A DNA stretch of 32,309 bases. It comes from an uncultured bacterium. Lineage in GTDB: Bacteria; Bacillota; Clostridia; Lachnospirales; Lachnospiraceae. The notes below the pieces were generated by a model. It was not told the DNA's origin. It was given only the letters and a program-made list of their open reading frames with translations, and searched no databases. This document shows, piece after piece, positions 1,372 through 22,810 of this stretch (the stretch's first letter is position 1; each line of letters starts with the position of its first letter). Position numbers and translations under genes: made by a program. The stretch is from the NCBI GenBank assembly GCA_946061355.1, contig CAMGRE010000003.1:1-32309 (forward strand). The letters are read 5' to 3'.

Positions 1372-1400
1372 TTGACAAATAATACGGCAGCACATATACT
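1372..1400 (+). promoter_or_regulatory. sigma-A promoter of the fab cluster (TTGACA-17-TATACT)
   Basis: TTGACA 1372-1377, 17-nt spacer, TATACT 1395-1400, upstream of acpP. Confidence 0.85.
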
Positions 1401-1414
1401 TTGAATGTCAAACT
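1398..1414. promoter_or_regulatory. FabT-type operator ACTTTGAATGTCAAACT overlapping the -10 of the acpP promoter
   Basis: Inverted TTTGA-N3-TCAAA repeat resembling the lactic-acid-bacterial FabT box; a near-identical copy lies upstream of fabD. Confidence 0.75.
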
Positions 1415-1449: not shown

Positions 1450-1683
1450 ATGTTAGAGAGAGTAAAAGAAATCATTCAGGAGCAGTTAAACTTAGACGGC
1501 GTAGAAATCACAGAGGAGTCTTCCTTCAAGGATGATCTGGGCGCAGATTCCCTGGATCTTTTTGAACTGGTTATGGCATTTGAGGAAGAGTACGGTATCG
1601 AGATTCCTTCTGAAGATCTGGAGCAGATCACAACAGTTGGAGCGGTTATCGAGTACATGAAGAGCAAAGGCGTTGAAGCATAA
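1450..1683 (+). CDS. acpP: acyl carrier protein
   Basis: [20 protein letters not shown]...[26 protein letters not shown] with the DSL phosphopantetheine site; AAAAAGGAG SD upstream of ATG 1450. Confidence 0.97.
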
Positions 1684-1684
1684 T

Positions 1685-2608
1685 ATGAAAACAAGAGTGA
1701 CAGAACTGCTGGGAATCGAGTACCCCATTATTCAGGGGGGAATGGCCTGGGTTGCCGAGCATAATCTTGCGGCGGCTGTATCACAGGCAGGCGGTCTTGG
1801 CATTATCGGTGCCGGTGGCGCGCCGGCTGCTTTTGTGAAAGAGCAGATTGAAAAGGTAAAAGCAGTTACGGATAAGCCGTTCGGCGTGAATATCATGCTG
1901 ATGAATCCGGAAGCCGATGCGATCGCGAAGGTTGTTGTGGATGAGGGCGTCAAGGTCGTAACGACCGGCGCAGGTAATCCGGGCAAATATATGGCGATGT
2001 GGAAGGAAGCCGGCGTCAAGGTGATTCCTGTCGTTGCGAGTGTGGCAATGGCAAAGATGATGGAGCGCGGTGGTGCAGATGCCGTTGTTGCAGAGGGAAT
2101 GGAATCCGGTGGTCACATCGGCTCTGCCACAACGATGACACTGGTGCCTCAGGTTGTGGATGCAGTGAAGATACCGGTGATCGCAGCCGGTGGTATTGCG
2201 GATGGCAGAGGTTTTGCAGCAGCCATGATGCTGGGCGCTGAGGCTGTCCAGATGGGAACCCGCTTTGTTGTGGCGAAGGAATCCATTGTACATGAGAATT
2301 ATAAACAGAAAGTAATCATGGCAAAGGATATCGATTCCGAGGTGACAGGTATGAGTACCGGTCATCCGGTACGGCAGATCCGCAACAAAATGAGCAGGGA
2401 ATATCTGCAGATGGAGAAGGACGGCGCACCGTTTGAGGAGCTGGAGAAGCTTACGCTCGGATCTTTACGTCGTGCTGTTGTTGACGGCGATGTGGTTACC
2501 GGTACGATTATGGCAGGACAGATCGCGGGTATGGTGAAGAAAGAGCAGACCTGTGCCGAGATGATTCAGGAGATTATGGCGGAGGCGGAGAAGCTTCTTT
2601 CCAGGTAA
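1685..2608 (+). CDS. fabK: enoyl-[acyl-carrier-protein] reductase II (FMN-dependent)
   Basis: MKTRVTELLGIEYPIIQGGMAWVA...KPFGVNIMLMNP...EGVKVVTTGAGNPGKYM...AEGMESGGHIG, strongly FabK-like; within the fab cluster. Confidence 0.95.
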   Translation: MKTRVTELLGIEYPIIQGGMAWVAEHNLAAAVSQAGGLGIIGAGGAPAAFVKEQIEKVKAVTDKPFGVNIMLMNPEADAIAKVVVDEGVKVVTTGAGNPGKYMAMWKEAGVKVIPVVASVAMAKMMERGGADAVVAEGMESGGHIGSATTMTLVPQVVDAVKIPVIAAGGIADGRGFAAAMMLGAEAVQMGTRFVVAKESIVHENYKQKVIMAKDIDSEVTGMSTGHPVRQIRNKMSREYLQMEKDGAPFEELEKLTLGSLRRAVVDGDVVTGTIMAGQIAGMVKKEQTCAEMIQEIMAEAEKLLSR

Positions 2609-2691
2609 GAGGCATGACGACGCGGAAAGCTTTCGGAAGATGCTCCCGTGGCAAACAGTAAGATCAGTCAGATATATAAGAAATCATACAG

Positions 2692-2716
2692 GAGGTCTTT
2701 TATGTTAAAAGACCTC
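2692..2716 (+). promoter_or_regulatory. perfect 10-bp hairpin GAGGTCTTTT-ATGTT-AAAAGACCTC in the fabK-fabD spacer
   Basis: Direct inverted repeat; contains an AGGAGG SD and an ATG (2702) in frame with fabD. Confidence 0.8.
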
Positions 2717-2732
2717 TCATTTTCGAGAAAAT

Positions 2733-2749
2733 ACTTTGAATTTCAAACT
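2733..2749. promoter_or_regulatory. FabT-type operator ACTTTGAATTTCAAACT upstream of fabD
   Basis: 16 of 17 positions identical to the acpP operator at 1398-1414. Confidence 0.75.
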
Positions 2750-2764
2750 AAAAGGAGTCTTCAT

Positions 2765-3688
2765 ATGAGTAAGATTGCATTTATGTTTCCCGGACAGGGA
2801 TCCCAGTATGTAGGCATGGGAAAGGATTTTTATGAAGCGGTTCCGGTATGTAAGGAAACGTTTGATCTGGCAAGCAAAGCAAGCGGACTGGATGTACCGG
2901 CGTTATGTTTTGAGGAGAATGACAAGATCAATATCACAGAGTATACACAGATTGCCATGCTTGCTACGGAGGTGGCAATCCTGAAGGCTCTGGAAGAAAA
3001 AGGGATCAAGCCCGACGTGACAGGCGGCTTAAGCCTTGGCGAGTACGGCGCACTGGCCGCAAGCGGCGTTATGAGCACAGAGGATGTGTTTAGGGTAGTG
3101 AGAAAGCGCGGTATCTTTATGCAGGAGGCAGTTCCGACAGGCGGCGCCATGACTGCAGTGCTTGGGCTGGATGCAGCGGTGATCGAGCAGATCTGTGAGG
3201 AGACAGAAGGGATTGTTTCCATTGCAAATTATAACTGCCCCGGTCAGATCGTGATCACAGGTGAGGAAGCAGCGGTGGCTGCAGCAGCGGAAAAACTGTC
3301 AGCAGCAGGTGCAAAGAGATGTGTGCCGCTTAAGGTCAGCGGACCGTTTCACTCCAAAATGCTGACAGGCGCAGGCGAGAAGCTGGGCGAGGTGCTTGAG
3401 GACGTGGAGATTCATGATATTCAGATCCCTTACATCGCAAATGTGACAGCTGACTATGTGACGGACAAAACTGAGGTGAAGGAACTCCTCACAAAACAGG
3501 TGTCTTCCTCCGTGAGATGGCAGCAGTCTGTTGAACGCATGTTGGCAGACGGTGTTGATACCTTTGTGGAGATCGGACCCGGCAAGACATTGTCCGGTTT
3601 TATGAGGAAGATCAACCGTGATGTGAAGGTAGTCAATATCGATAAACTTGAGGATCTTGATAAGGCAGTGGAAGCGCTGCAGGCATAA
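2765..3688 (+). CDS. fabD: malonyl-CoA:ACP transacylase
   Basis: MSKIAFMFPGQGSQYVGMGKDF, GLSLGEYGAL active-site serine motif, SGPFHSKML, VEIGPGKTL. ATG 2765 has SD AAGGAG. Confidence 0.97.
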   Translation: MSKIAFMFPGQGSQYVGMGKDFYEAVPVCKETFDLASKASGLDVPALCFEENDKINITEYTQIAMLATEVAILKALEEKGIKPDVTGGLSLGEYGALAASGVMSTEDVFRVVRKRGIFMQEAVPTGGAMTAVLGLDAAVIEQICEETEGIVSIANYNCPGQIVITGEEAAVAAAAEKLSAAGAKRCVPLKVSGPFHSKMLTGAGEKLGEVLEDVEIHDIQIPYIANVTADYVTDKTEVKELLTKQVSSSVRWQQSVERMLADGVDTFVEIGPGKTLSGFMRKINRDVKVVNIDKLEDLDKAVEALQA

Positions 3689-3696
3689 ATTTCAGA

Positions 3697-3715
3697 CGGA
3701 ACAAAAAATGTTCCG
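3697..3715 (+). promoter_or_regulatory. 7-bp hairpin CGGAACA-AAAAA-TGTTCCG in the fabD-fabG spacer
   Basis: Perfect inverted repeat next to the fabG SD. Confidence 0.6.
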
Positions 3716-3730
3716 GGAGAGAGGTAGAAA

Positions 3731-4471
3731 ATGTTAGAGGGAAAGGTTGCACTGGTTACGGGTGCCAGCAGAGGAATCGGCAGGCAGATTGCACTGACGC
3801 TTGCAGGATATGGCGCTACAGTGATCGTGAACTACAATGGTTCCAAAGAAAAGGCCGAGGCAGTGGTGGCAGAGATTACATCAGCGGGCGGGACGGCAGA
3901 AGCTGTCCAGTGCTCTGTGGCGGATTTTGATGCATGCGGAAAGATGATCACCGATATGCTGGCAAAGTACGGTCACATTGATATTCTTGTGAACAATGCA
4001 GGCATCACCAAAGATAATCTGGTAATGAAGATGACAGAGGCAGACTTTGACGCTGTTATCGACACGAATCTGAAGGGCTGTTTCAATACGATCAAGCATA
4101 TGTACAAACCGTTCTTAAAGCAGAGAGCGGGACGAATCATCAATATGGCGTCTGTATCCGGGGTGCTGGGAAATGCAGGACAGGCGAACTACTCCGCATC
4201 CAAGGCAGGAGTGATCGGATTGACCAAGTCTATGGCAAGAGAGCTTGCGAGCAGGAATATCACTGTGAATGCGGTAGCTCCCGGATTTATTGATACGGAT
4301 ATGACGCAGGCAATGACAGATGCGGCAAAAGAAGCTGTATTAGGGCAGATCCCGCTTAAGAGAGTCGGAAAGCCGGAGGATATCGCGGAGACAGTAGCAT
4401 TTCTTGCCAGTGAAAAAGCATCGTATATTACAGGACAGATCATCAGCGTAGATGGCGGCATGGCCATCTGA
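3731..4471 (+). CDS. fabG: 3-oxoacyl-ACP reductase
   Basis: [38 protein letters not shown]; fab context. Confidence 0.97.
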
Positions 4472-4495
4472 CGGGATAATATTGTATGCATCAGT

Positions 4496-4529
4496 ATGCA
4501 GAACGGCTGCCGGGGCAGGCATTCTGCAT
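4496..4529 (+). promoter_or_regulatory. imperfect hairpin ATGCAGAA...TTCTGCAT in the fabG-fabF spacer
   Basis: 8-bp outer stem with inner CTGCC/GGCAG pairing. Confidence 0.5.
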
Positions 4530-4554
4530 TGTACAGGGAAAGAGAGGAAGCGCA

Positions 4555-5790
4555 ATGAGCAGACGAGTAGTAGTAACAGGTTTGGGTGCCATTACACCGA
4601 TCGGACTCAGTGTAGATGAGTTTTGGGCAGGTGTGAAGGAGCAGAAAATCGGATTTGCCGAAATCACAAAATTTGATACCACAGATTATAAGTGTAAGCT
4701 GGCAGCAGAGGTAAAAGACTTTGATGCAAAGCAGTTTATGGACTTTAAGGCAGCTAAGAGAATGGAAGCATTCAGTCAGTATGCGGTGGCAGCGGCAAAG
4801 GAAGCAATGACGGATGCATCTCTTGATATGGAGAAAGAAGATCCTTATATGGTGGGCGTTGCCGTAGGTTCCGGAATCGGTTCCCTTCAGGCAATGGAGA
4901 GAGAGCATATTAAACTTCTGGAGAAGGGACCGGGCAGGGTGAACCCTTTGTTGGTACCGATGATGATCTCCAATATGGCAGCGGGAAATGTTTCGATCCA
5001 GTTTGGATTGAAAGGGAAAAATATCAATGTGGTAACTGCCTGCACAACAGGCACGAACTCGATCGGTGAAGCATTCCGTACCATTCAGTACGGTGATGCG
5101 GATGTGATGATCGCGGGCGGTACCGAGAGCAGTGTTACACCGATCGGCATTGCCGGATTCAGTGCACTCACGGCGCTCTCCACCAGTACAGACCCTACAA
5201 GATGTTCCATTCCTTTCGATAAGGAGAGAAACGGTTTCGTCATGGGTGAAGGTGCAGCGATCGTGGTTCTTGAGGAGCTTGAGCACGCAAAGAAGCGCGG
5301 TGCCAAGATTTATGCGGAAGTGGCAGGCTATGGCTGTTCTGCGGATGCTTTCCATATCACATCTCCTGCGGAAGACGGAGCAGGTGCAGCGAAGGCAATG
5401 GAAAATGCCATTAAGGATGCGGGCATTGCAAAAGAGGATGTATTTTACATCAATGCCCATGGAACTGCAACACATCACAACGATCTGTTTGAGACACGTG
5501 CGATTAAGCTGCTGTTCGGTGATCATGCGAAGGAGATGAAGATCAACTCCACCAAGTCCATGGTAGGACATCTTCTTGGTGCGGCAGGTGCGATCGAGTT
5601 TGTTACCTGCGTAAAAGAGATTCAGGAGAATTACATCCATGCTACAGTCGGCTATCAGGTGCCGGATGAGGAGTGTGATCTGGATTACTGTAAGGAGCCG
5701 GTAGAGACAGAGGTAAAATATGCTCTCTCAAATTCTCTCGGTTTCGGAGGACATAACGCAAGTCTTCTTGTAAAGAAATATGAGGCATAG
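4555..5790 (+). CDS. fabF: beta-ketoacyl-ACP synthase II
   Basis: MSRRVVVTGLGAITPIGL, VVTACTTGTNSIGEA (active Cys), NAHGTATHHND, STKSMVGHLLGAAGAIE; ATG 4555 preceded by AGAGGAAG. Confidence 0.97.
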   Translation: MSRRVVVTGLGAITPIGLSVDEFWAGVKEQKIGFAEITKFDTTDYKCKLAAEVKDFDAKQFMDFKAAKRMEAFSQYAVAAAKEAMTDASLDMEKEDPYMVGVAVGSGIGSLQAMEREHIKLLEKGPGRVNPLLVPMMISNMAAGNVSIQFGLKGKNINVVTACTTGTNSIGEAFRTIQYGDADVMIAGGTESSVTPIGIAGFSALTALSTSTDPTRCSIPFDKERNGFVMGEGAAIVVLEELEHAKKRGAKIYAEVAGYGCSADAFHITSPAEDGAGAAKAMENAIKDAGIAKEDVFYINAHGTATHHNDLFETRAIKLLFGDHAKEMKINSTKSMVGHLLGAAGAIEFVTCVKEIQENYIHATVGYQVPDEECDLDYCKEPVETEVKYALSNSLGFGGHNASLLVKKYEA

Positions 5791-5802
5791 TATTGTAGTA
5801 AA

Positions 5803-5818
5803 TGATGAAGATTCATCA
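5803..5818 (+). promoter_or_regulatory. palindrome TGATGAA-GA-TTCATCA in the fabF-fabZ spacer
   Basis: Perfect 7-bp inverted repeat just before the fabZ SD. Confidence 0.5.
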
Positions 5819-5832
5819 GGAAAGAGGTTGGC

Positions 5833-6270
5833 ATGTCACTTTTAAGTGCAAAGCAGATTATGGAAATCATTCCCCACAGGCAGCCGTTTATGTTGATCGA
5901 TACCATCGAGGAGATGGAGCCCGGCGTCAGAGCTGTGGGTAAGAAATGTGTATCTTATAATGAACCTTTCTTTGCAGGGCATTTCCCCGGGGAACCGGTG
6001 ATGCCGGGCGTACTGATCATTGAAGCTCTGGCCCAGGTGGGCGCGGTGGCGATCCTGAGTCTGGAAGCAAACAAAGGCAAAACAGCATATTTCGGGGCGA
6101 TCAATTCCGCGAAATTTAAGGGAAAGGTCGTACCGGGGGATGTGTTGACTCTGGAGACGGAAATTGTAAAGACGAAAGGTCCGATTGGTGTTGGTAATGC
6201 AAAGGCTTATGTGGACGGTAAGGTAGTGGCACAAGCAGAGCTGACCTTTGCCATTGGAAGCGGTTCATGA
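5833..6270 (+). CDS. fabZ: 3-hydroxyacyl-ACP dehydratase
   Basis: IMEIIPHRQPFMLIDTI...NEPFFAGHFPGEPVMPGVLIIEALAQVGA catalytic His/Glu motifs. Confidence 0.97.
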   Translation: MSLLSAKQIMEIIPHRQPFMLIDTIEEMEPGVRAVGKKCVSYNEPFFAGHFPGEPVMPGVLIIEALAQVGAVAILSLEANKGKTAYFGAINSAKFKGKVVPGDVLTLETEIVKTKGPIGVGNAKAYVDGKVVAQAELTFAIGSGS

Positions 6271-7340
6271 CGATGGAAAATCAGAATAATAAGTCCAGAT
6301 CTCTGGTGATTGGGGATCTGACAGTAAAAGTGCCTCTGATCCAGGGGGGTATGGGCGTCGGAATCAGCCTTTCAAGACTTGCAGGCACAGTGGCTGCCGA
6401 GGGCGGTATCGGTATTATTTCCACGGCACAGATCGGTTATCGGGAGCCGGATTTTGACGAGCACCCCATTGAGGCGAATCTGCGGGCGATTCATACCGAA
6501 GTGGCAAAGGCACGGGAGATCGCCAAAGGCGGTGCCATCGGCGTTAATATCATGGTGGCTACAAGAGATTATGACAGATATGTGGAAGCGGCAATCGATG
6601 CGGGAGTGGATATTATCATTTCCGGAGCCGGACTTCCGATGAAACTGCCGGAGCTGGCGGGGAATTCCCATACGAAGCTTGCGCCCATTGTATCCAGCGT
6701 GAAATCGGCGGATGTCATCTGCAAATACTGGCTGAAGAAATATGACAGGCTGCCGGATCTGGTGGTGATCGAGGGTCCCCGTGCGGGCGGACATCTCGGG
6801 TTTCATTATGATCAGCTACAGAATATTGATGATGCTGCTTATGATGAGGAGATCAGGCGTATTATTGCGCTTGTGAACCGGTATGCGGCGGATCGTGGCA
6901 AAGTAATTCCTGTAGTTGTGGCAGGCGGCGTTTATGAACGCAAGGATATGGATCATTATATGTCCATGGGGGCAGCAGGCGTACAGGTGGCTACAAGATT
7001 TGTGACTACATATGAGTGTGATGCTTCCGAAGCTTATAAGCAGACATATATTGATGCAAAAGAGGAAGACATCATTATCGTACAGAGTCCTGTCGGTATG
7101 CCGGGACGCGCCATCAGCAATGATTTTATGAAACGTGCGAAACAGGGACGGATCCCTCACGGGAAGTGCCATACCTGTATCAGCACCTGCAAACCGGCGG
7201 AGACGCCATACTGTATCACGGAAGCGCTGGTCAATGCGGCAAAAGGCAATGTGCAGGAAGCTCTTTTGTTCTGCGGAAGCAATGCATACCGGGCGACAAA
7301 GCTGGAACATGTGAAAGATATCATGGATGAATTCCGCTGA
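6267..7340 (+). CDS. nitronate monooxygenase / FabK-like FMN oxidoreductase with C-terminal Cys cluster
   Basis: LIQGGMGVGISLSRLAGTVA, GAIGVNIMVATRDY, IEGPRAGGHLGFH, VVAGGVY; GKCHTCISTCKPAETPYCI near the C terminus. Start overlaps the fabZ stop (ATGA). Confidence 0.88.
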   Translation: MTMENQNNKSRSLVIGDLTVKVPLIQGGMGVGISLSRLAGTVAAEGGIGIISTAQIGYREPDFDEHPIEANLRAIHTEVAKAREIAKGGAIGVNIMVATRDYDRYVEAAIDAGVDIIISGAGLPMKLPELAGNSHTKLAPIVSSVKSADVICKYWLKKYDRLPDLVVIEGPRAGGHLGFHYDQLQNIDDAAYDEEIRRIIALVNRYAADRGKVIPVVVAGGVYERKDMDHYMSMGAAGVQVATRFVTTYECDASEAYKQTYIDAKEEDIIIVQSPVGMPGRAISNDFMKRAKQGRIPHGKCHTCISTCKPAETPYCITEALVNAAKGNVQEALLFCGSNAYRATKLEHVKDIMDEFR

Positions 7341-7368
7341 AATTTCCGGCAGTGCGGATGAGAAATTT
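7340..7368 (+). promoter_or_regulatory. hairpin AAATTTC...GAAATTT in the spacer before fabH
   Basis: 7-bp perfect outer stem, possible inner CCG/CGG. Confidence 0.4.
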
Positions 7369-7422
7369 TGAACATAAGGAAACAGAGATAAGATTCAGAG
7401 GAGACAGGAGAATACCTGAATT

Positions 7423-8397
7423 ATGGAAAATAGATTGACGAGCAGAATCATTGGGACAGGAAGCTGCCTTCCGGAGAATGTCGTGACAAATGACGATCTG
7501 TCAAAGATCATGGACACATCCGATGAGTGGATTTCCAGCAGAACCGGTATCCGCAAACGCCATCTGGTTAAGGAGGAAACGACTGCGGGAATGTCCATTG
7601 AGGCCGGAAAGCGTGCACTGCAGCAGGCGGGCGTATCGCCGGAGGAATTGGATCTGATCGTGGTGGGTACCTTGACGGGAGACTATATCACACCGTCTAC
7701 GGCCTGTGAGGTACAGGCAGGGCTGGGGGCGATAAATGCCACAGCCTTTGACATCAATGCAGCATGTTCCGGATTCATTTTCGGGCTGCAGACAGTGAAC
7801 GCCTATATAAGCGCAGGCATGTGCAAAACGGCACTCGTGATCGGTGCCGAGACGTTGTCCAAGATTGTGGACTGGAATGACAGAAGCACCTGTGTGCTAT
7901 TTGGAGATGGTGCCGGTGCAGCGGTTGTTAAGGCAGATACTATGGGTGTTCTCGCCTGCGATCACGGTTCTGACGGAGCAAAAGGCATGTATCTGGCGGG
8001 ACTTAACAGAACGAACAACAATCCCCTGATCCAGACAGACAAAGCGTTGCAGTATGTCCAGATGGACGGGCAGGAAGTTTACAAATTTGCAGTGTCCACT
8101 GTTCCGGCTTCTATTCAGAAGGTCCTGGATCAGGCGGGACTCGCGCCGGAGGATATTAAGTATTATGTGCTGCACCAGGCAAACTTACGTATCCTGCAGT
8201 CTGTGGCGAAGCGCCTGAAGGTTCCGATGGACAGATTTCCCATCAGTCTGGATCACTGCGGAAACATTTCCGCGGGAAGTGTTCCGATTCTGTTGGATGA
8301 AGTGAATCAGAAGGGTATGCTTCAGAAGGGCGATAAGATTATCATGTCCGGATTCGGCGGCGGCCTTACCTGGGGAACCTGCCTGATTGAGTGGTAA
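7423..8397 (+). CDS. fabH: beta-ketoacyl-ACP synthase III
   Basis: TSDEWISSRTGIRKRH, INAACSGFIFGLQ (Cys), LHQANLRI (His), HCGNISAGSVPILLDE (Asn). Confidence 0.97.
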   Translation: MENRLTSRIIGTGSCLPENVVTNDDLSKIMDTSDEWISSRTGIRKRHLVKEETTAGMSIEAGKRALQQAGVSPEELDLIVVGTLTGDYITPSTACEVQAGLGAINATAFDINAACSGFIFGLQTVNAYISAGMCKTALVIGAETLSKIVDWNDRSTCVLFGDGAGAAVVKADTMGVLACDHGSDGAKGMYLAGLNRTNNNPLIQTDKALQYVQMDGQEVYKFAVSTVPASIQKVLDQAGLAPEDIKYYVLHQANLRILQSVAKRLKVPMDRFPISLDHCGNISAGSVPILLDEVNQKGMLQKGDKIIMSGFGGGLTWGTCLIEW

Positions 8398-8512: not shown

Positions 8513-9388
8513 ATGAAGAAATTAGCAGCAGTACTGATGACAGTCTGTGTTGCAGCTTCTCTCATGGCATGCGGAAGCAGTGCTCCGGCAGAGACCGCAG
8601 CACCGGCTACAGAGGCAGCTGAGGCGGAAGCACCTGCAGCAGAAGAGAGCACAGAGGAAGCTGGGTCAGCAATTCCCAATACCGTAAATTCCCTTGAGGA
8701 TCTTCCGGGTAAGACCATCGGCGTACAGCTCGGCACAACAGGTGATATTTATGCAAGTGATTATGAGGCTGAAGGTTCTACCATCGAGCGTTTCAACAAG
8801 GCAGCCGATGCCGTACAGGCACTGAAGCTTGGAAAGGTTGACTGTGTCATCATCGACGGACAGCCTGCAGAGGAATTTGTGGCAGTAAATGATGACCTGA
8901 AGATCCTGGATGAAGATTTCGCATTGGAAGATTATGCGATCTGTGTGTCTAAGGATAAGCCGGAGCTTACCAAGGCAATGAATGAGGCTATGGCAGAGCT
9001 GAAGGCAGACGGTGTGTTTGATCAGATCGTGGCAAATTACATCGGCGATGATACAAAGGGAACTTGCCCTTATGAGACACCTGAAGGAACAGAGTATCCG
9101 AACGGCAAACTTGTCATGGCTACCAACGCAGCATTCCCGCCTTATGAGTATATGGAGGGAGATAAAATCGTAGGTATCGATGCCGAGATGGCAAAGGCAA
9201 TCTGCGACAAGATGGGCTATGAGCTTCAGATTGATGATATGGAGTTTGATTCTATCATCGCTGCAGTTCAGTCCGGAAAGGCTGATTTCGGTGCAGCCGG
9301 TATGACAGTGACAGAGGACAGACTGCTCAGCATCGACTTTACAGATTCTTATGCAACAGCAACACAGGTTGTTATTGTCAGAAAATAA
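8513..9388 (+). CDS. amino-acid ABC transporter substrate-binding lipoprotein with circularly permuted SBP_bac_3-type fold
   Basis: Lipobox SLMAC; lobe II (SLEDLPGKTIGVQLGTTGDIYA...YAICVSKDKPELTKAMNEAMAELKADGVFDQIVANYIG) precedes lobe I (LVMATNAAFPPYEYMEGDKIVGIDAEMAKAICDKMGYE...AGMTVTEDRLLSIDFTDSY...VVIVRK). Confidence 0.92.
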   Translation: MKKLAAVLMTVCVAASLMACGSSAPAETAAPATEAAEAEAPAAEESTEEAGSAIPNTVNSLEDLPGKTIGVQLGTTGDIYASDYEAEGSTIERFNKAADAVQALKLGKVDCVIIDGQPAEEFVAVNDDLKILDEDFALEDYAICVSKDKPELTKAMNEAMAELKADGVFDQIVANYIGDDTKGTCPYETPEGTEYPNGKLVMATNAAFPPYEYMEGDKIVGIDAEMAKAICDKMGYELQIDDMEFDSIIAAVQSGKADFGAAGMTVTEDRLLSIDFTDSYATATQVVIVRK

Positions 9389-9420
9389 ATTGTCGATTAT
9401 AATAGTATAAGTTACAGGCA

Positions 9421-9454
9421 AACGGGTCGTTACGTGTGTGACGGCCCGTTTTTT
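9421..9454 (+). terminator. Rho-independent terminator/attenuator between SBP and permease genes
   Basis: ACGGGTCGT-loop-ACGGCCCGT stem followed by TTTTTT. Confidence 0.85.
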
Positions 9455-9481
9455 AAACAGTGATACCGGGAGGGATCTTTC

Positions 9482-10171
9482 GTGGACGATTTCAAAATGC
9501 GGTTTTATGTGAATTTTATTAAGGATGACAGGTACATGTATCTGGTCAAAGGTCTGCAGAATACTTTGATCATTACTTTTTTTTCCGCGCTGCTGGGTAT
9601 CCTGCTCGGATTTCTTGTTGCCATCATCCGTTCCACTTATGAAAAGACGGGTAAGTGCAAAATTTTAAATGCTGTTTGTAAGGTGTATCTGACGGTAATC
9701 CGCGGCACGCCCATGATGGTTCAGCTCCTGATCATGTGTTATGTGGTGTTTGGAAGCTATAATCTGAATAAGATCGTTGTTGCATTTCTTGCGTTTGGCT
9801 TTAATTCCGGCGCTTATGTGGCAGAGATCGTCCGTTCCGGTATCATGTCCATCGATCCCGGCCAGATGGAGGCAGGACGGAGTCTTGGCTTCAGCTATGG
9901 AAAAACGATGTGGTATATTATTCTGCCCCAGGCATTTAAGAATATCCTTCCGGCGCTGGCAAATGAGTTTATTGTGCTTTTGAAGGAGACTTCGGTCTGT
10001 GGATACATCGGTCTGATGGATCTGACCAGAGGCGGAGATATTATCAGAAGCCGTACATACGAGGCATTTTTACCTTTGATTGCGGTTGCACTCATTTATC
10101 TGGTGATCGTAATGATTCTGACAAATCTGGTGGGAAGGCTGGAAAGGAGGCTGCGTACAAGTGAACGATAG
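9482..10171 (+). CDS. polar amino-acid ABC transporter permease (HisM/GlnP family)
   Basis: [82 protein letters not shown]. Confidence 0.93.
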
Positions 10172-10904
10172 AGGAGATGTATTATTCAAAGTAGAGGGCT
10201 TGTGCAAATCCTTCGGCAGCAACCTTGTGCTCGATCATATCAGTACAGAGATTAAGAGCGGGGAGGTTGTGGTGATTGTCGGTCCCTCCGGTTCCGGGAA
10301 ATCCACATTCTTAAGATCCCTGAACCTGCTGGAGATGCCCACAGGCGGGCAGATCCTGTTTGAAGGGCAGAATATTACGGATAAGAAGACGGATATTGAT
10401 GCCTACAGACAGAAGATCGGTATGGTGTTCCAGCATTTTAACCTGTTCCCACACAAGACGATTCTGGAGAACCTGACGCTTGCACCGATCAAGCTGTTGA
10501 AAAAATCAAAAGTTGAAGCTGATAAGGAAGCAATGGAACTTCTGAAGAGAGTAGGACTTGAGGAAAAGGCTTCAGCGTATCCTTCACAGTTGTCAGGAGG
10601 GCAGAAGCAGCGCATTGCTATTGTGCGTTCTCTTGCCATGCATCCCGAGGTGATGCTGTTTGATGAACCGACTTCGGCACTGGATCCGGAGATGGTAGGA
10701 GAAGTGTTGAATGTTATGACGGATCTTGCCAAAGACGGAATGACAATGGTCATTGTTACCCATGAGATGGGATTTGCGAAGGAAGTGGGAACCAGAGTGC
10801 TCTTTATTGATGAGGGACAGATCAAGGAGGAGAACACGCCGAAAGAGTTCTTTGAGAATCCGCAGAATCCCAGATTAAAAGAGTTCCTTTCAAAAATCCT
10901 GTAG
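10161..10904 (+). CDS. polar amino-acid ABC transporter ATP-binding protein (GlnQ family)
   Basis: GPSGSGKST Walker [18 protein letters not shown] signature, [14 protein letters not shown] Walker B; GTG start overlapping the permease. Confidence 0.95.
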
Positions 10905-16998: not shown

Positions 16999-18177
16999 AT
17001 GAAGAAAAAGTTATTGGCAGTATTGATGGTGGCAGCCATGACAGTAGCAACGCTGGCAGGTTGTGGCAAGTCTTCCGATGGTGCGGCAAGTGCGTCCGCA
17101 GATTCGGGAGATGTGATCAAGATCGGTGTGTTTGAGCCCCTGACAGGCGAGAACGGCGGCGGCGGTTCACAGGAAGTGGACGGTATCAAATATGCGAATC
17201 AGGTATATCCTGAAGTGCTTGGCAAGAAGATTGAACTCGTAGTGGTTGATAATAAGTCCGATAAGGGCGAGGCAACAACAGCGGCAACACGTCTGGTTGA
17301 GCAGGAAGGTGTTGTAGCGGTTCTCGGTTCTTACGGTTCCGGCGTATCTATCGCAGCAGGCGATATCTTTAAGAATGCAAAAGTACCTGCAATGGGATGT
17401 TCTTGTACAAACCCTATGGTAACACAGGGAAATGAGTACTACTTCCGTACCTGCTTCCTGGATCCTTTCCAGGGTACTGTAATGGCTAATTACTGTACAC
17501 AGCAGGGATTCACAAAGGCAGCGGTTGTATATCAGAATGGCGATGACTACTCCACAGGTCTTGCAAACTTCTTCAAGACAGCATTCACAGAGGCTGGTGG
17601 CGAGATCGTGAATGAGGGTGTCATCCAGACAAATGATTCCGATTATAACTCCATTCTTACCAACATTAAGTCCTCCGGCGCTGAGGTAATCTTTGCTCCT
17701 TCTTCCATCCAGGTTGCAGGTGCATTCATTAAGCAGGCAAGAGCACTCGGTATCGACGCGCTGATTTGCGCAGGTGACACATGGGAGAATGAGGCGATCA
17801 TCGATGTTGCAGGTGAGGCTGCCAACGGTATCGTACTTTCCACATTCTATGATGAGAACGATGCAAGCGCTTCCGATGAAGCTAAGAAATTTGTTCCCGG
17901 CTTCAAAGAGTATCTTGGAGGAGACGACAATATCATCCCTGCAGTATCCGCACTTGGCTATGACGCTTACTGCGTAGTACGTGACGCGATCGAGAGAGCA
18001 GGTTCTACAGACGGTGACGCAATCCGTCAGGCGCTCGTTGATACAAAGGAATTTGTAGGTGTTACCGGAGCGATCAAATTCGATGAGAACGGTGATGCTG
18101 ACAAGAGTGTTGCAATCGTTAAGACTGTAGAGAATGGTGAGTTCAAATACCTCGACACAGTGGAAGTTGCAAAATAA
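16999..18177 (+). CDS. livJ: branched-chain amino-acid ABC transporter substrate-binding lipoprotein
   Basis: Lipobox LAGC; IKIGVFEPLTGENGGGG, VAVLGSYGSGVSIAA, YQNGDDYSTGLANFFKTAF; first gene of livHMGF operon. Confidence 0.93.
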   Translation: MKKKLLAVLMVAAMTVATLAGCGKSSDGAASASADSGDVIKIGVFEPLTGENGGGGSQEVDGIKYANQVYPEVLGKKIELVVVDNKSDKGEATTAATRLVEQEGVVAVLGSYGSGVSIAAGDIFKNAKVPAMGCSCTNPMVTQGNEYYFRTCFLDPFQGTVMANYCTQQGFTKAAVVYQNGDDYSTGLANFFKTAFTEAGGEIVNEGVIQTNDSDYNSILTNIKSSGAEVIFAPSSIQVAGAFIKQARALGIDALICAGDTWENEAIIDVAGEAANGIVLSTFYDENDASASDEAKKFVPGFKEYLGGDDNIIPAVSALGYDAYCVVRDAIERAGSTDGDAIRQALVDTKEFVGVTGAIKFDENGDADKSVAIVKTVENGEFKYLDTVEVAK

Positions 18178-18207
18178 GTAAGACATTTGTCTGATTTGAG
18201 TACTATT

Positions 18208-18239
18208 TGAGAAAGGCCGGAGTTTTCCTGCCTTTCTCA
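18208..18239 (+). terminator. attenuator-like hairpin between livJ and livH
   Basis: TGAGAAAGGC...GCCTTTCTCA 10-bp perfect stem; weak T tail (ATTTCT). Confidence 0.65.
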
Positions 18240-18290
18240 TTTCTACTGTTAGTGCAGTGGAAATAAAATTAAGTATGGAGGAAGTAACAC

Positions 18291-19184
18291 ATGAGTATGG
18301 ACATTTTTATGCAGCATCTGCTGAACGGTATCTCCGTGGGCAGTTTGTATGCACTCATCGCGATCGGCTATACCATGGTTTACGGAATTCTGCTCCTGAT
18401 CAACTTCGCCCATGGCGATATTTTTATGATGGCATCCTATTTTATGATCTTTGCGGTGGTAGACTTTGGCATGCCGATCTGGATAGCAATTCCGTTAATC
18501 ATTCTGCTGACGGTGATCCTGGGTATGCTTTTGGAGAGAAGCGCCTATAAGCCTTTGAGAGAGGCGCCGAGGATGTCGATCATGATCTCGGCGATCGGCG
18601 CATCCTTCCTGCTGGAAAACCTCGCAACATATTTGTTTTCCGGCGTACCGAAAGGGTATCCGGATATTCCCTGGCTGACAAAGGTAGTGAACATTGGGAA
18701 TGTATCATTCCAGATTGTCACAGTGGTGGCACCGGTGCTGGTAATCTTCATCCTGATCGGCCTGATGTGGCTCGTGAATCATACCAAGACGGGTATGGCG
18801 ATGCGTGCGGTATCCAAGGACTTTGAGACAGCCAGACTGATGGGAATCAAGATCAATACCGTCATTGCAGCAACATTTGCGATCGGTTCCGGACTTGCGG
18901 CAGTTGGTTCGGTACTCTGGGGAGCAAAATACTCCTCGGTATATCCGTTGATGGGTGTTATGCCGGGATTGAAATGCTTTGTGGCTGCCGTGTTCGGCGG
19001 TATCGGCAATATACCGGGCGCTGTGCTGGGCGGTATTGTTCTGGGACTTGGTGAAACGATGCTGGTTGCATTCTTTCCGGGACTCACCGGTTACAGGGAT
19101 GCATTTGCATTTGTGTTATTGATCGTAATGCTCTTAGTCAGACCCAATGGTCTGCTGGGCGAAAAATCAACGGATAAGGTGTGA
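18291..19184 (+). CDS. livH: branched-chain amino-acid ABC transporter permease
   Basis: LLNGISVGSLYALIAIGYTMVYGILLLINFAHGDIFMM typical LivH N terminus; GAVLGGIVLGLGE. Confidence 0.95.
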   Translation: MSMDIFMQHLLNGISVGSLYALIAIGYTMVYGILLLINFAHGDIFMMASYFMIFAVVDFGMPIWIAIPLIILLTVILGMLLERSAYKPLREAPRMSIMISAIGASFLLENLATYLFSGVPKGYPDIPWLTKVVNIGNVSFQIVTVVAPVLVIFILIGLMWLVNHTKTGMAMRAVSKDFETARLMGIKINTVIAATFAIGSGLAAVGSVLWGAKYSSVYPLMGVMPGLKCFVAAVFGGIGNIPGAVLGGIVLGLGETMLVAFFPGLTGYRDAFAFVLLIVMLLVRPNGLLGEKSTDKV

Positions 19185-20263
19185 TGAATATGAGTAAAAA
19201 GACAAAAAATATATGTACAGCCATATTGATCCTGGTGGCAGTTATTCTGATCACTTTATTTGACAATGATGTGATCGGGAATGCCTATATCAAACGTGTG
19301 CTGAATCTGGCAGCAATCTATGCGATTATCAGTGTTTCGATGAATCTGGTAAACGGCTTTACCGGAATGTTTTCTCTTGGGCAGGCGGGCTTCATGGCGA
19401 TCGGTGCTTTTACCGTTGCGGTATTTACGGTTCCTGCGGAGAGCATACCTTCCATTTTCTACATAGAGCCGATGGCTCCCTGGCTTGCGGCGATCAGGCT
19501 TCCTTTTGTGGTAGCGCTTCTGGTGGGTGGATTGATCGCTGCAGTGCTGGCGCTGATCATCGGTTATCCGGTGCTGAGACTCAAGAGTGATTATCTTGCG
19601 ATCGCAACGCTGGGATTTTCGGAAATCATCCGTATCGTGTTTACACAGATGCAGACGATCACAAACGGAGCGCTGGGAATCAAATGTATTCCGGGCATTA
19701 CCACGATGTGGGTTCCGTTCGGTGCGGCGGCAATCTGTATCGGGATCATGGTCTTGCTGATCAATTCCTCTTACGGGAGAGCGTTTAAGGCGATCCGCGA
19801 GGATGATATTGCGGCGGAGGCCATGGGAATCAATCTGAGTTTTCACAAGAATCTGTCCTTTGCGATCAGTTCTTTCTTTACGGCGATCGCCGGTGGACTG
19901 TTCGCATCCCTGCTTACCGCAGTGGATCCCAAGCAGTTTTACTTTACACTGACCTACAACTTCCTTCTGATCATCGTATTGGGAGGTATGGGAAGTGTGA
20001 CAGGTACGATCATTGCTTCCTTTATCATAACTGGTGGGCTGGAATGGCTCAGATTCTTTGACGAGCCGCTTTCGGTTATGGGCTACAACATTCCGATCTT
20101 CCGCGCAGGACTTCGTATGGTAGTGTTCTCACTCCTCCTGATGATCCTGGTACTCTTCTACAGAAAAGGAATCATGGGACAGAAAGAGTTCTCCTGGGAT
20201 GGGATCTATAACTGGATCATGAAGGTGAAGACCAGACTCTCCAGAAAGAAAGGAGGGGCGTGA
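19184..20263 (+). CDS. livM: branched-chain amino-acid ABC transporter permease
   Basis: VNGFTGMFSLGQAGFMAIGAF, LRLKSDYLAIATLGFSEIIRIV, GGMGSVTGTIIASFI. Confidence 0.95.
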   Translation: MNMSKKTKNICTAILILVAVILITLFDNDVIGNAYIKRVLNLAAIYAIISVSMNLVNGFTGMFSLGQAGFMAIGAFTVAVFTVPAESIPSIFYIEPMAPWLAAIRLPFVVALLVGGLIAAVLALIIGYPVLRLKSDYLAIATLGFSEIIRIVFTQMQTITNGALGIKCIPGITTMWVPFGAAAICIGIMVLLINSSYGRAFKAIREDDIAAEAMGINLSFHKNLSFAISSFFTAIAGGLFASLLTAVDPKQFYFTLTYNFLLIIVLGGMGSVTGTIIASFIITGGLEWLRFFDEPLSVMGYNIPIFRAGLRMVVFSLLLMILVLFYRKGIMGQKEFSWDGIYNWIMKVKTRLSRKKGGA

Positions 20264-20265
20264 AG

Positions 20266-21114
20266 ATGGACAGACAGGTATTAGGTGTTAATGATGTAAC
20301 GATGCAGTTCGGCGGCGTGGTGGCTGTGAACAATTTGTCCCTCCATGTGAATGAAGGCGAGATCGTGGCTCTGATCGGACCGAACGGTGCCGGAAAAACA
20401 ACGGCATTTAATGTGATCACGGGTGTGTACGCGCCCAGCAACGGTCAGGTAGTGTTCAAGGACAATGTCATATCCTCAAACTATCCTCACGGGAAATTCC
20501 GGAAGAAATACCTCGGCGAGCAGGAAACCATGGATAAGTATTCCGTTGTGAAATCCATGACGCCGGATAAGATCACGAAACTGGGTGTGGCGAGAACCTT
20601 CCAGAATATCAGACTGTTTAAGAATCTTACAGTGTTTGAGAATGTATTGATCGCAAAGCATATGCGTTCAAAAGCGAATTTCCTGTCGGCAACCTTCCGC
20701 TTGAATTATAAAGAGGAAAAACAGAATCGCGATGAGACGATGGAACTTCTTAAGATCCTCGGACTGGATGATGTGAAGGATGAAGTTGCACATTCTCTCC
20801 CCTACGGAAAGCAGAGACATCTGGAGATTGCGAGAGCGCTGGCAACCAAGCCGGAACTGCTCCTTCTCGATGAACCTGCCGCAGGTATGAACCCGCAGGA
20901 AACGGTTGAGCTCACACAGTTCATCAAAAAGATCAAGGATGATTTTAACCTGACAGTATTTATGATAGAGCATCATATGGACCTGGTCATGGAGATTTCC
21001 GACCGGATTTATGTACTTGATTTCGGCAAGCTGATCGCGGAGGGTACACCCGAGGAGATTCAGAATAACCAGAGAGTAATTGACGCATATTTGGGGGTGC
21101 AGCAGGATGAGTAA
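20266..21114 (+). CDS. livG: branched-chain amino-acid ABC transporter ATP-binding protein
   Basis: GPNGAGKTTAFNVITGVY Walker A, GVARTFQNIRLF, LLLLDEPAAGMNPQET; AAGGAGG SD before ATG 20266. Confidence 0.95.
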   Translation: MDRQVLGVNDVTMQFGGVVAVNNLSLHVNEGEIVALIGPNGAGKTTAFNVITGVYAPSNGQVVFKDNVISSNYPHGKFRKKYLGEQETMDKYSVVKSMTPDKITKLGVARTFQNIRLFKNLTVFENVLIAKHMRSKANFLSATFRLNYKEEKQNRDETMELLKILGLDDVKDEVAHSLPYGKQRHLEIARALATKPELLLLDEPAAGMNPQETVELTQFIKKIKDDFNLTVFMIEHHMDLVMEISDRIYVLDFGKLIAEGTPEEIQNNQRVIDAYLGVQQDE

Positions 21115-21829
21115 AGAATATATTTTGGAAATTTCAAATCTGTCTGTATCCTATGGCGGTATCAAGGCGGTAAAGGATATCAGCTTTGCCGTTCCGAAGG
21201 GCGAGGTCGTAACGCTGATCGGTGCGAACGGCGCGGGCAAGAGTTCGACTCTGCGTGCCATTGTTGGTCTTGAGAAACCCGCTGCAGGCAGCATTAAGTT
21301 TGCCGGAGAAGAACTGGCCGGGCTTTCAACGGATGCTATCGTGGAAAAGGGTATCACGCTCGTTCCGGAGGGGAGACGTGTATTCCCCAATCTGACAGTG
21401 CTTGAGAATCTGAAGATCGGCGCATATATGCGCAAGGATGATCTCAGCAAGGATATCGAGTGGGTATGTGATCTGTTCCCCAGACTGAAGGAGCGTTCCT
21501 GGCAGAAAGCCGGAACACTTTCCGGAGGAGAGCAGCAGATGCTTGCCATCGGAAGGGCGCTCATGAGCAAGCCGTCCGTTATCATGATGGATGAGCCGTC
21601 GCTCGGACTTGCACCGATCGTGGTACAGGGTGTGTTTGATATCATCAAAGAGATCAACAGACAGGGCGTGACGATCCTGTTGGTGGAGCAGAATGCCAAT
21701 ATGGCGCTCAAGGCGGCGGATCAGGCATATGTCATGGAAACCGGACGCATTACCATGTCAGGAACCGGTACGGAGCTCCTTGAGAATGATGATATCAAGG
21801 CAGCTTACCTGGGTAAGTCAAAAAAATAG
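21107..21829 (+). CDS. livF: branched-chain amino-acid ABC transporter ATP-binding protein
   Basis: GANGAGKSSTLRAIVGL, LVPEGRRVFPNLTVLENL, LSGGEQQMLAIGRALM, DEPSLGLAPIVV. Confidence 0.96.
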   Translation: MSKEYILEISNLSVSYGGIKAVKDISFAVPKGEVVTLIGANGAGKSSTLRAIVGLEKPAAGSIKFAGEELAGLSTDAIVEKGITLVPEGRRVFPNLTVLENLKIGAYMRKDDLSKDIEWVCDLFPRLKERSWQKAGTLSGGEQQMLAIGRALMSKPSVIMMDEPSLGLAPIVVQGVFDIIKEINRQGVTILLVEQNANMALKAADQAYVMETGRITMSGTGTELLENDDIKAAYLGKSKK

Positions 21830-21860: not shown

Positions 21861-21888
21861 ACGGGACTGCCGCGGCGGTCCCGTTTTT
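21861..21888 (+). terminator. intrinsic terminator of the liv operon
   Basis: ACGGGAC-loop-GTCCCGT followed by TTTTT. Confidence 0.85.
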
Positions 21889-21893
21889 GATTC

Positions 21894-21922
21894 TTGCTTT
21901 CATTCTTAATCTCATGTAAAAT
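21894..21922 (+). promoter_or_regulatory. candidate sigma-A promoter TTGCTT-17-TAAAAT
   Basis: -10 ends 7 nt before ATG 21930. Confidence 0.5.
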
Positions 21923-21929
21923 CCTATAT

Positions 21930-22391
21930 ATGGATACGATTTGGCTGGCAGCAGGAATAGGAATAATATGCGTTTTTGCAGTGATCATATACGGCGTTGT
22001 CCGGGGCAGACGGAAGGAACTGCCGTTTGACAGTATGGAGGGCCATGATTTTGAGAGGTTCTGTGCGGATCTTCTGAAAGCCAGGGGGTTTTTGGAGGTG
22101 GAAGTCACCAAAGGGAGCGGAGACTTCGGCGTGGATATCCTGGCGGAGAAGGATGGTGTCAGTTACGCCTTCCAGTGTAAGCGCTATGACGAGCCGGTCG
22201 GGGTAAAAGCGGTACAGGAAATCTATGCGGGCCGGGACTATTATGACAGGCAGATCGGGGTGGTAATGACCAATCAGTATTTCACCGCGCCTGCCGTTGA
22301 AGCTGCTAAGAAGCTTAAAATACTATTGTGGGACAGAGGTTATCTGGAAGAGATGATGGAGGAGACACCGTGGACATCAACGCCGCTTTGA
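21930..22391 (+). CDS. membrane-anchored Mrr-like restriction endonuclease (PD-(D/E)XK)
   Basis: N-terminal TM (IWLAAGIGIICVFAVIIYGVV); FERFCADLLKARGF, KGSGDFGVDILAEKDGVSYAFQCKRYDEPVGVKAVQEI...GVVMTNQYFTAPAVEAAK. Confidence 0.85.
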   Translation: MDTIWLAAGIGIICVFAVIIYGVVRGRRKELPFDSMEGHDFERFCADLLKARGFLEVEVTKGSGDFGVDILAEKDGVSYAFQCKRYDEPVGVKAVQEIYAGRDYYDRQIGVVMTNQYFTAPAVEAAKKLKILLWDRGYLEEMMEETPWTSTPL

Positions 22392-22810
22392 ACGAAGTGT
22401 TCGTCAAGGTTTTTAAAAATATCATGGCAATCGAAGAAAAGGCAGTATCGGGACAGGAGTATCACAATGCCACAACAAATGACATGCATGTCATTGAGGC
22501 GATCGGCATCGGAAAGCCTAAGAATATGACTTCCGTTGCCAAGGCGCTTTCCGTTACCACGGGGACTCTTACCATTGCCGTAAACAGCCTGGTGAAAAAG
22601 GGATTCGTGGAGCGTGTCAGAAGTGAGGAGGACCGCAGGGTGGTCCTGGTTTCTCTGACAGAAAAAGGAAAAGACGTGTATGCCCACCACCAGGAGTTTC
22701 ACACACGTCTGGTGGAGAGCATCGTGGCGCAGCTCAGCGAGGAGGAGAAGGTTTTATTGGAGAAGGTACTCTCCAATCTGAGTCGGTATTTTAAAGATAT
22801 GAATCTATAA
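22370..22810 (+). CDS. fabT: MarR-family transcriptional regulator, FabT-like
   Basis: VFKNIMAIEEKAVSGQEYHNATTNDMHVIEAIG...GTLTIAVNSLVKKGFVERVRSEEDRRVVLVSLTEKGKDVYAHHQEFH resembles streptococcal FabT; GTG start with GGAGGA SD inside the nuclease gene. Confidence 0.8.
   Translation: MDINAALNEVFVKVFKNIMAIEEKAVSGQEYHNATTNDMHVIEAIGIGKPKNMTSVAKALSVTTGTLTIAVNSLVKKGFVERVRSEEDRRVVLVSLTEKGKDVYAHHQEFHTRLVESIVAQLSEEEKVLLEKVLSNLSRYFKDMNL

What the first reader, a model, noticed from the sequence alone, without database searches (positions are those of the whole stretch)
21930..22810. FabT-like regulator unlinked from the fab cluster and overlapping a membrane-anchored Mrr-like nuclease
In streptococci fabT lies in the fab cluster. 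Here the fabT-like gene starts (GTG 22370) 22 nt inside the end of a PD-(D/E)XK Mrr-family gene, with its SD in that gene, so they are probably translationally coupled. The nuclease-like protein has an N-terminal TM helix and no R-M partner nearby. Coupling a membrane-lipid regulator to a membrane-tethered nuclease is unexpected and may point to a phage-response or membrane-stress link.
Basis: partly seen in the sequence, partly recalled or inferred. Interest (0 to 1): 0.6.

Follow-up and report, generated by a model that had tools for sequence, protein, structure and literature searches.

The report
Unlinked FabT regulator overlapping membrane nuclease gene
This gut bacterium (family Lachnospiraceae) keeps the FabT switch for its fatty-acid genes 14 kb away from those genes, hooked onto the end of an unrelated membrane-anchored nuclease gene; the overlap is real, but comparison with relatives shows a shifting gene neighbourhood rather than a partnership between lipid control and phage defence.

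Summary
A Mrr_cat (PF04471) protein with an N-terminal membrane helix (21930-22391) overlaps a FabT-type MarR gene (GTG 22370) by 22 nt, and the FabT Shine-Dalgarno lies inside the nuclease gene. The MarR protein is FabT by sequence (nearest solved structure: pneumococcal FabT). Exact FabT boxes occur three times in the assembly: before acpP, fabD and a distant carboxyl-transferase gene. Across the family the box tracks FabT (35 of 36 genomes with FabT, 2 of 22 without), so FabT still appears to control the fab cluster 14 kb away.

The proposed lipid/nuclease link is not supported. The genes share an old neighbourhood in one Lachnospiraceae clade, but each is often kept without the other and co-occurrence is at background (p = 0.37). 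In Butyrivibrio the same nuclease precedes an 8-oxoguanine glycosylase. Most same-genus relatives have a separate fabT promoter with its own box; the window and its sister species lost it. The real interest is regulatory: a FabT that has lost operon linkage and its own box, unlike the "perfectly coupled" fabT operons of streptococci and enterococci. Two relatives have the box upstream of the nuclease-fabT pair, so a FabT-controlled nuclease is not excluded there.

The parts
21930..22391 (+). Membrane-anchored Mrr_cat-domain protein (153 aa; TM about residues 2-26, cytoplasmic PD-(D/E)XK domain, motifs GSGDFGVD and QCK)
   Evidence: Pfam PF04471 E 1e-30; TM and positive-inside signal in 77/77 homologues; catalytic motif in 79/81, the other two with a conservative change; AlphaFold pLDDT 85, helix 2-26; Foldseek to AF1548, MspJI, AspBHI
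22370..22810 (+). FabT (MarR-family fatty-acid synthesis repressor), GTG start inside the nuclease gene
   Evidence: NCBIfam FabT E 2e-41; PDB 6JBX E 1e-30; start conserved in relatives
22358..22391 (+). Junction: SD-like GGAGGAG in codons for the nuclease C-terminus (MMEE), fabT GTG 22370, 22-nt overlap to nuclease stop TGA 22389-22391
   Evidence: sequence, junction comparison
21894..21929 (+). Likely promoter of the nuclease-fabT pair (TTGCTT-N17-TAAAAT), downstream of a livF terminator-like hairpin (about 21867-21890); no FabT box
   Evidence: sequence reading; no box at <=2 mismatches
1372..1412 (+). acpP/fab promoter TTGACA-17-TATACT with the FabT box TTTGAATGTCAAA overlapping the -10
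   Evidence: conserved in relatives
2735..2747 (+). Second FabT box (TTTGAATTTCAAA), upstream of fabD
   Evidence: conserved in most of the genus
1450..8397 (+). fab cluster acpP-fabK-fabD-fabG-fabF-fabZ-NMO/FabK-like-fabH, the predicted FabT target
   Evidence: ORFs, tblastn synteny

Best explanation
The MarR gene is a true FabT: a dimeric repressor that binds TTTGA-N3-TCAAA overlapping the -10 of the acpP/fab promoter, the fabD promoter and a carboxyl-transferase promoter, presumably with long-chain acyl-ACP as co-repressor as in streptococci and enterococci. In the window's clade fabT lies outside the fab cluster, in an old neighbourhood (SpmA/SpmB-like genes - variable cargo - nuclease - fabT - convergent DUF885). 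In this species and its sister the spacer holding fabT's own promoter and autoregulatory box has been lost, so fabT is now read from the nuclease promoter and translated through an SD supplied by the nuclease's MMEE tail. FabT supply should therefore no longer follow FabT or acyl-ACP level. The nuclease is a separate, mostly vertically kept, membrane-anchored PD-(D/E)XK enzyme, most likely acting on incoming or damaged DNA at the membrane. Shown by sequence: identities, overlap, boxes, synteny, tree. Inferred: repression, ligand, coupling strength, nuclease function.
For: FabT identity. Boxes: 2 exact in the window against 0.10 expected; 3 genome-wide with 0 in the reversed control; the third is upstream of a PF01039 carboxyl transferase and that site is conserved in G001, G002, G003, G007 and G008. 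Box and FabT presence co-vary, 35/36 against 2/22, p 2.5e-12; the two exceptions have same-genus sisters with FabT. Own box 35-37 nt before fabT in G001, G002, G005, G006, G007, none in window/G004. Window+G004 nest inside these relatives (node 95/86) and tight coupling needs at least 3-5 state changes. Orthologues lie in the fab cluster elsewhere in the family. Nuclease/FabT co-occurrence 21/34 against 191/363, p 0.37. The nuclease is followed directly by DUF885 with no fabT in 18 loci and has an OGG glycosylase downstream in 30 Butyrivibrio loci, several overlapping. SD-like tail in 42/70 nuclease genes without a near fabT. Both genes under purifying selection, dN/dS 0.10 and 0.02.
Against: The FabT model score is below NCBI's equivalog cutoff, expected if the model was built from distant lactic acid bacteria but not proof. 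Tight coupling arose more than once in this clade, which selection for co-expression would also give. In two tight relatives (L232/G040, L288) a FabT box lies upstream of the nuclease, so there the pair looks autoregulated as one operon. Absence of a box in the window was tested only to 2 mismatches; a weak operator or another promoter inside the nuclease gene cannot be excluded. The box/FabT association is not corrected for phylogeny. The genome is a MAG, 80% complete.
Confidence: 0.8

Rival explanations
1. Functional pair: the nuclease and FabT form a selected unit linking membrane-lipid state to DNA cleavage (phage or membrane-stress response).
For: 22-nt overlap with internal SD; tight coupling in about ten genomes of several genera, at least 3 independent changes; in L232/G040 and L288 a FabT box precedes the nuclease, putting it in the FabT regulon; nuclease domain resembles the Mrr-like domains of defence proteins such as ZorD.
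Against: Co-occurrence no better than background; the nuclease is kept at the same site after fabT loss and couples to other genes; FabT kept without nuclease in most of the family and in three same-genus genomes; separate autoregulated fabT promoter in most same-genus relatives.
Confidence: 0.07
2. Neutral neighbourhood only: the overlap is a by-product of spacer deletion and has no regulatory consequence; FabT level is still set by an unseen promoter or is unimportant.
For: Gene overlaps are common in bacteria (general knowledge); the nuclease tail codes for MMEE, which supplies an SD by itself; FabT repression is weak, 2-5 fold, in model species (PMC13046290).
Against: Loss of an autoregulatory box that is conserved at -35 to -37 in five same-genus relatives should change FabT supply; other lineages keep a box at fabT or upstream of the pair.
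Confidence: 0.1
3. The MarR protein is not FabT but another MarR regulator, for example AdcR-like or of unknown target.
For: Below the NCBIfam FabT cutoff; not in the fab cluster here.
Against: Best PDB hit is FabT by 17 orders of magnitude; orthologues lie in the fab cluster in family-mates; box/FabT co-variation; AdcR model only 54 bits.
Confidence: 0.03

Closest known systems
FabT of Streptococcus pneumoniae / Enterococcus faecalis / Lactococcus (MarR family)
   Same: Same protein family (PDB 6JBX, E 1e-30), palindromic operator at fab promoters, fab genes as target, a second FabT-type promoter inside the cluster as in streptococci
   Different: There fabT is first gene of the operon it controls (PMC13046290); here it is 14 kb away, has no box of its own and is hooked to a nuclease gene
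Mrr-type (type IV) restriction endonuclease
   Same: Mrr_cat catalytic domain with D-x-G-x-D...Q-x-K motif; fold like MspJI/AspBHI modification-dependent enzymes
   Different: No Mrr N-terminal DNA-recognition domain; a single membrane helix in its place; 153 aa
COG4741 membrane-helix PD-(D/E)XK proteins (Kosinski et al. 2005, PMC1189080)
   Same: N-terminal membrane helix, small cytosolic nuclease core; proposed there as a membrane-associated guardian against foreign DNA
   Different: That family is YraN-like, this one is Mrr_cat

Membership tests
FabT fatty-acid synthesis repressor | Sequence closest to FabT among MarR families | tested here: met
   PDB best hit 6JBX E 1e-30, next 1e-13; NCBIfam FabT top model E 2e-41
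FabT fatty-acid synthesis repressor | Curated NCBIfam equivalog score of at least 200 bits | tested here: not met
   141.5 bits; this is a curated naming threshold rather than a biological feature, so FabT is assigned here by orthology and operator evidence
FabT fatty-acid synthesis repressor | TTTGA-N3-TCAAA operator at fab promoters, tracking regulator presence | tested here: met
   35/36 genomes with FabT, 2/22 without
FabT fatty-acid synthesis repressor | DNA binding enhanced by acyl-ACP | not testable with these tools
   needs EMSA
Perfectly coupled fabT operon | fabT co-transcribed with the fab operon, autoregulated | tested here: not met
   fabT 14 kb from fabH behind other genes; no box at <=2 mismatches upstream
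PD-(D/E)XK Mrr_cat nuclease domain | Pfam Mrr_cat match with intact catalytic residues and fold | tested here: met
Type IV restriction enzyme Mrr (full length) | N-terminal Mrr recognition domain plus Mrr_cat | tested here: not met
   only a membrane helix precedes Mrr_cat
Known anti-phage defence system | Partner genes of a described system next to the nuclease | tested here: not met
   PADLOC matches are domain-level only; identified neighbours are housekeeping or transport genes

The most novel reading that the evidence does not exclude
In part of this clade (L232/G040 and L288, with a FabT box upstream of the nuclease-fabT pair) the membrane nuclease is a genuine member of the FabT regulon, so acyl-ACP level would tune a membrane-tethered nuclease; the window would be a relative that kept the coupling but lost the box.
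Probability: 0.07. Interest if true: 0.6.

Novelty: new variant of a known kind. Interest (0 to 1): 0.3.

Why it matters
It points to a FabT regulon in Lachnospiraceae, for which I found no description in the open-access papers searched, including a distant carboxyl-transferase target. It also offers a natural series of regulator wirings within one family: fabT in the fab operon, unlinked but autoregulated, and unlinked without its own box. That makes the published argument that coupling fabT to its operon gives optimal control (Hlavacek-Savageau, discussed in PMC13046290) testable by comparison. It also warns against reading an overlap in one genome as a functional pair.

Tried and rejected
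Lipid/phage link: rejected as main reading on co-occurrence, alternative partners and box evidence. Overlap unique to this species: rejected; about ten tight pairs are known. Overlap as the ancestral state of the genus: not favoured by the FabT tree. Defence-island or R-M partner: none found in the neighbourhoods; PADLOC hits are domain-only. Phage-borne origin: 22 viral contigs carry related Mrr domains (best 63%), mostly without the membrane part, so no direct source. A first catalytic-motif regex was wrong and was corrected. Eight fab loci first scored as lacking a box had truncated upstream DNA or one mismatch; refetching five of them showed exact boxes. Literature searches for FabT in Lachnospiraceae/Clostridia found nothing specific.

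Full report
WHAT IS THERE. The window is a complete 32-kb contig (G000:C3) of a Lachnospiraceae MAG (named near relative L220, Lachnospiraceae bacterium SUG999). The nuclease ORF is 21930-22391 and the MarR ORF is 22370-22810, an overlap of 22 nt. GGAGGAG before the GTG lies in the nuclease codons for its C-terminal MMEE. Same-genus FabT proteins begin at the same GTG (or TTG) xDIN start even where the nuclease is separate or absent, so the start is sound.

THE REGULATOR IS FABT. The FabT model is the best NCBIfam match (E 2e-41, 141.5 bits; cutoff 200 bits not reached) and pneumococcal FabT 6JBX is by far the nearest solved structure. Exact TTTGA-N3-TCAAA occurs twice in the window against 0.10 expected, at the acpP and fabD promoters. 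At acpP it overlaps the -10 of TTGACA-17-TATACT. The extended box occurs three times in the assembly with none in the reversed control; the third is upstream of a carboxyl-transferase gene, conserved in five relatives. Across the family the exact box is at a first or internal fab promoter in 35 of 36 genomes with FabT (the other has one mismatch) and in 2 of 22 without; those two have same-genus sisters with FabT, so assembly gaps are likely. The association is not corrected for phylogeny.

WHERE FABT SITS. In many family-mates the orthologue is in or at the end of the fab cluster. In the window's clade it lies in a neighbourhood of Gate-domain SpmA/SpmB-like genes, variable cargo (here a branched-chain amino-acid ABC operon), the nuclease, fabT, and a convergent DUF885 gene. 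The nuclease-linked FabTs all fall within one supported clade (100/99).

THE OVERLAP IS DERIVED HERE. G001, G002, G005, G006 and the nuclease-less G007 have a fabT promoter with its own FabT box 35-37 nt before the start; the window and G004 have the 22-nt overlap and no box. Window+G004 nest among these relatives (95/86), so the spacer with the box was probably lost in this lineage; the box is also missing in G008 and in G003/G009. Tight coupling occurs elsewhere in the clade (G040, G412, G046, L224, L246, L273, L283, L288), needing 5 changes on the tree and at least 3 by well-supported branches. A likely reason for recurrence is that the nuclease tail carries an SD-like sequence in 42 of 70 genes even without a nearby fabT: a ready-made ribosome site tolerates spacer deletions. 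That reason is an inference.

IS IT A FUNCTIONAL PAIR? Mostly not. In a family sample of 397 genomes FabT is present in 21 of 34 genomes with a close nuclease homologue and 191 of 363 others (p 0.37). In 18 named loci the nuclease is followed directly by DUF885 with no fabT between. In 30 Butyrivibrio loci an OGG-type 8-oxoguanine glycosylase gene lies downstream, several overlapping by 1-29 nt. Both genes are under purifying selection. The exception worth keeping is L232/G040 and L288, where a FabT box lies upstream of the nuclease-fabT pair.

THE NUCLEASE. One membrane helix, conserved in position and hydrophobicity but not in sequence (77/77), with more basic residues after it than before (4.2 against 1.5), so a cytoplasmic nuclease domain is predicted. 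Catalytic residues are invariant in practice. The AlphaFold model (pLDDT 85) matches AF1548, MspJI, AspBHI and Hjc-type folds. It lacks the Mrr recognition domain, so it is not a Mrr enzyme in the strict sense. Kosinski et al. 2005 (PMC1189080) proposed a comparable architecture, COG4741, as a membrane-associated guardian against foreign DNA. That, or a DNA-damage role hinted at by the OGG neighbour, is the best guess here; neither was tested.

MECHANISM AND MEANING. [quoted passage not shown] Here FabT supply would come from the nuclease promoter, with no FabT box, and translation from a coupled start: an uncoupled repressor. The steps shown are sequence-level; binding, ligand and expression are inferred.

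Noticed in passing
G000:C149:4641-4657 (L302:1501-1517): Third FabT box of the assembly, about 70 nt upstream of a carboxyl-transferase (PF01039) gene; site conserved in five relatives, suggesting a FabT regulon that includes acyl-CoA carboxylation.
   Followed up: partly
L225, L233, L236, L256, L261, L276 and other Butyrivibrio loci: The same membrane-anchored Mrr_cat gene has an OGG-type 8-oxoguanine DNA glycosylase gene downstream in 30 Butyrivibrio loci, sometimes overlapping.
   Followed up: partly
L120 (G054:C53) 8623-10183: In this relative the nuclease gene lies directly after fabH at the end of the fab cluster while fabT is on another contig.
   Followed up: no
L232 about 6813-6830 and L288 about 6898-6915: FabT box upstream of the nuclease in two tight nuclease-fabT pairs, putting the nuclease in the predicted FabT regulon there.
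   Followed up: partly
window 16999-21829: A branched-chain amino-acid ABC transporter operon sits between the SpmB-like gene and the nuclease here and in some relatives but is absent in others: variable cargo in a fixed neighbourhood.
   Followed up: partly
window 6267-7340: A second nitronate-monooxygenase/FabK-like gene inside the fab cluster, between fabZ and fabH.
   Followed up: no
L303-L324 (viral contigs): Mrr_cat domains up to 63% identical to the window's occur on viral contigs, mostly without the membrane-helix part.
   Followed up: no
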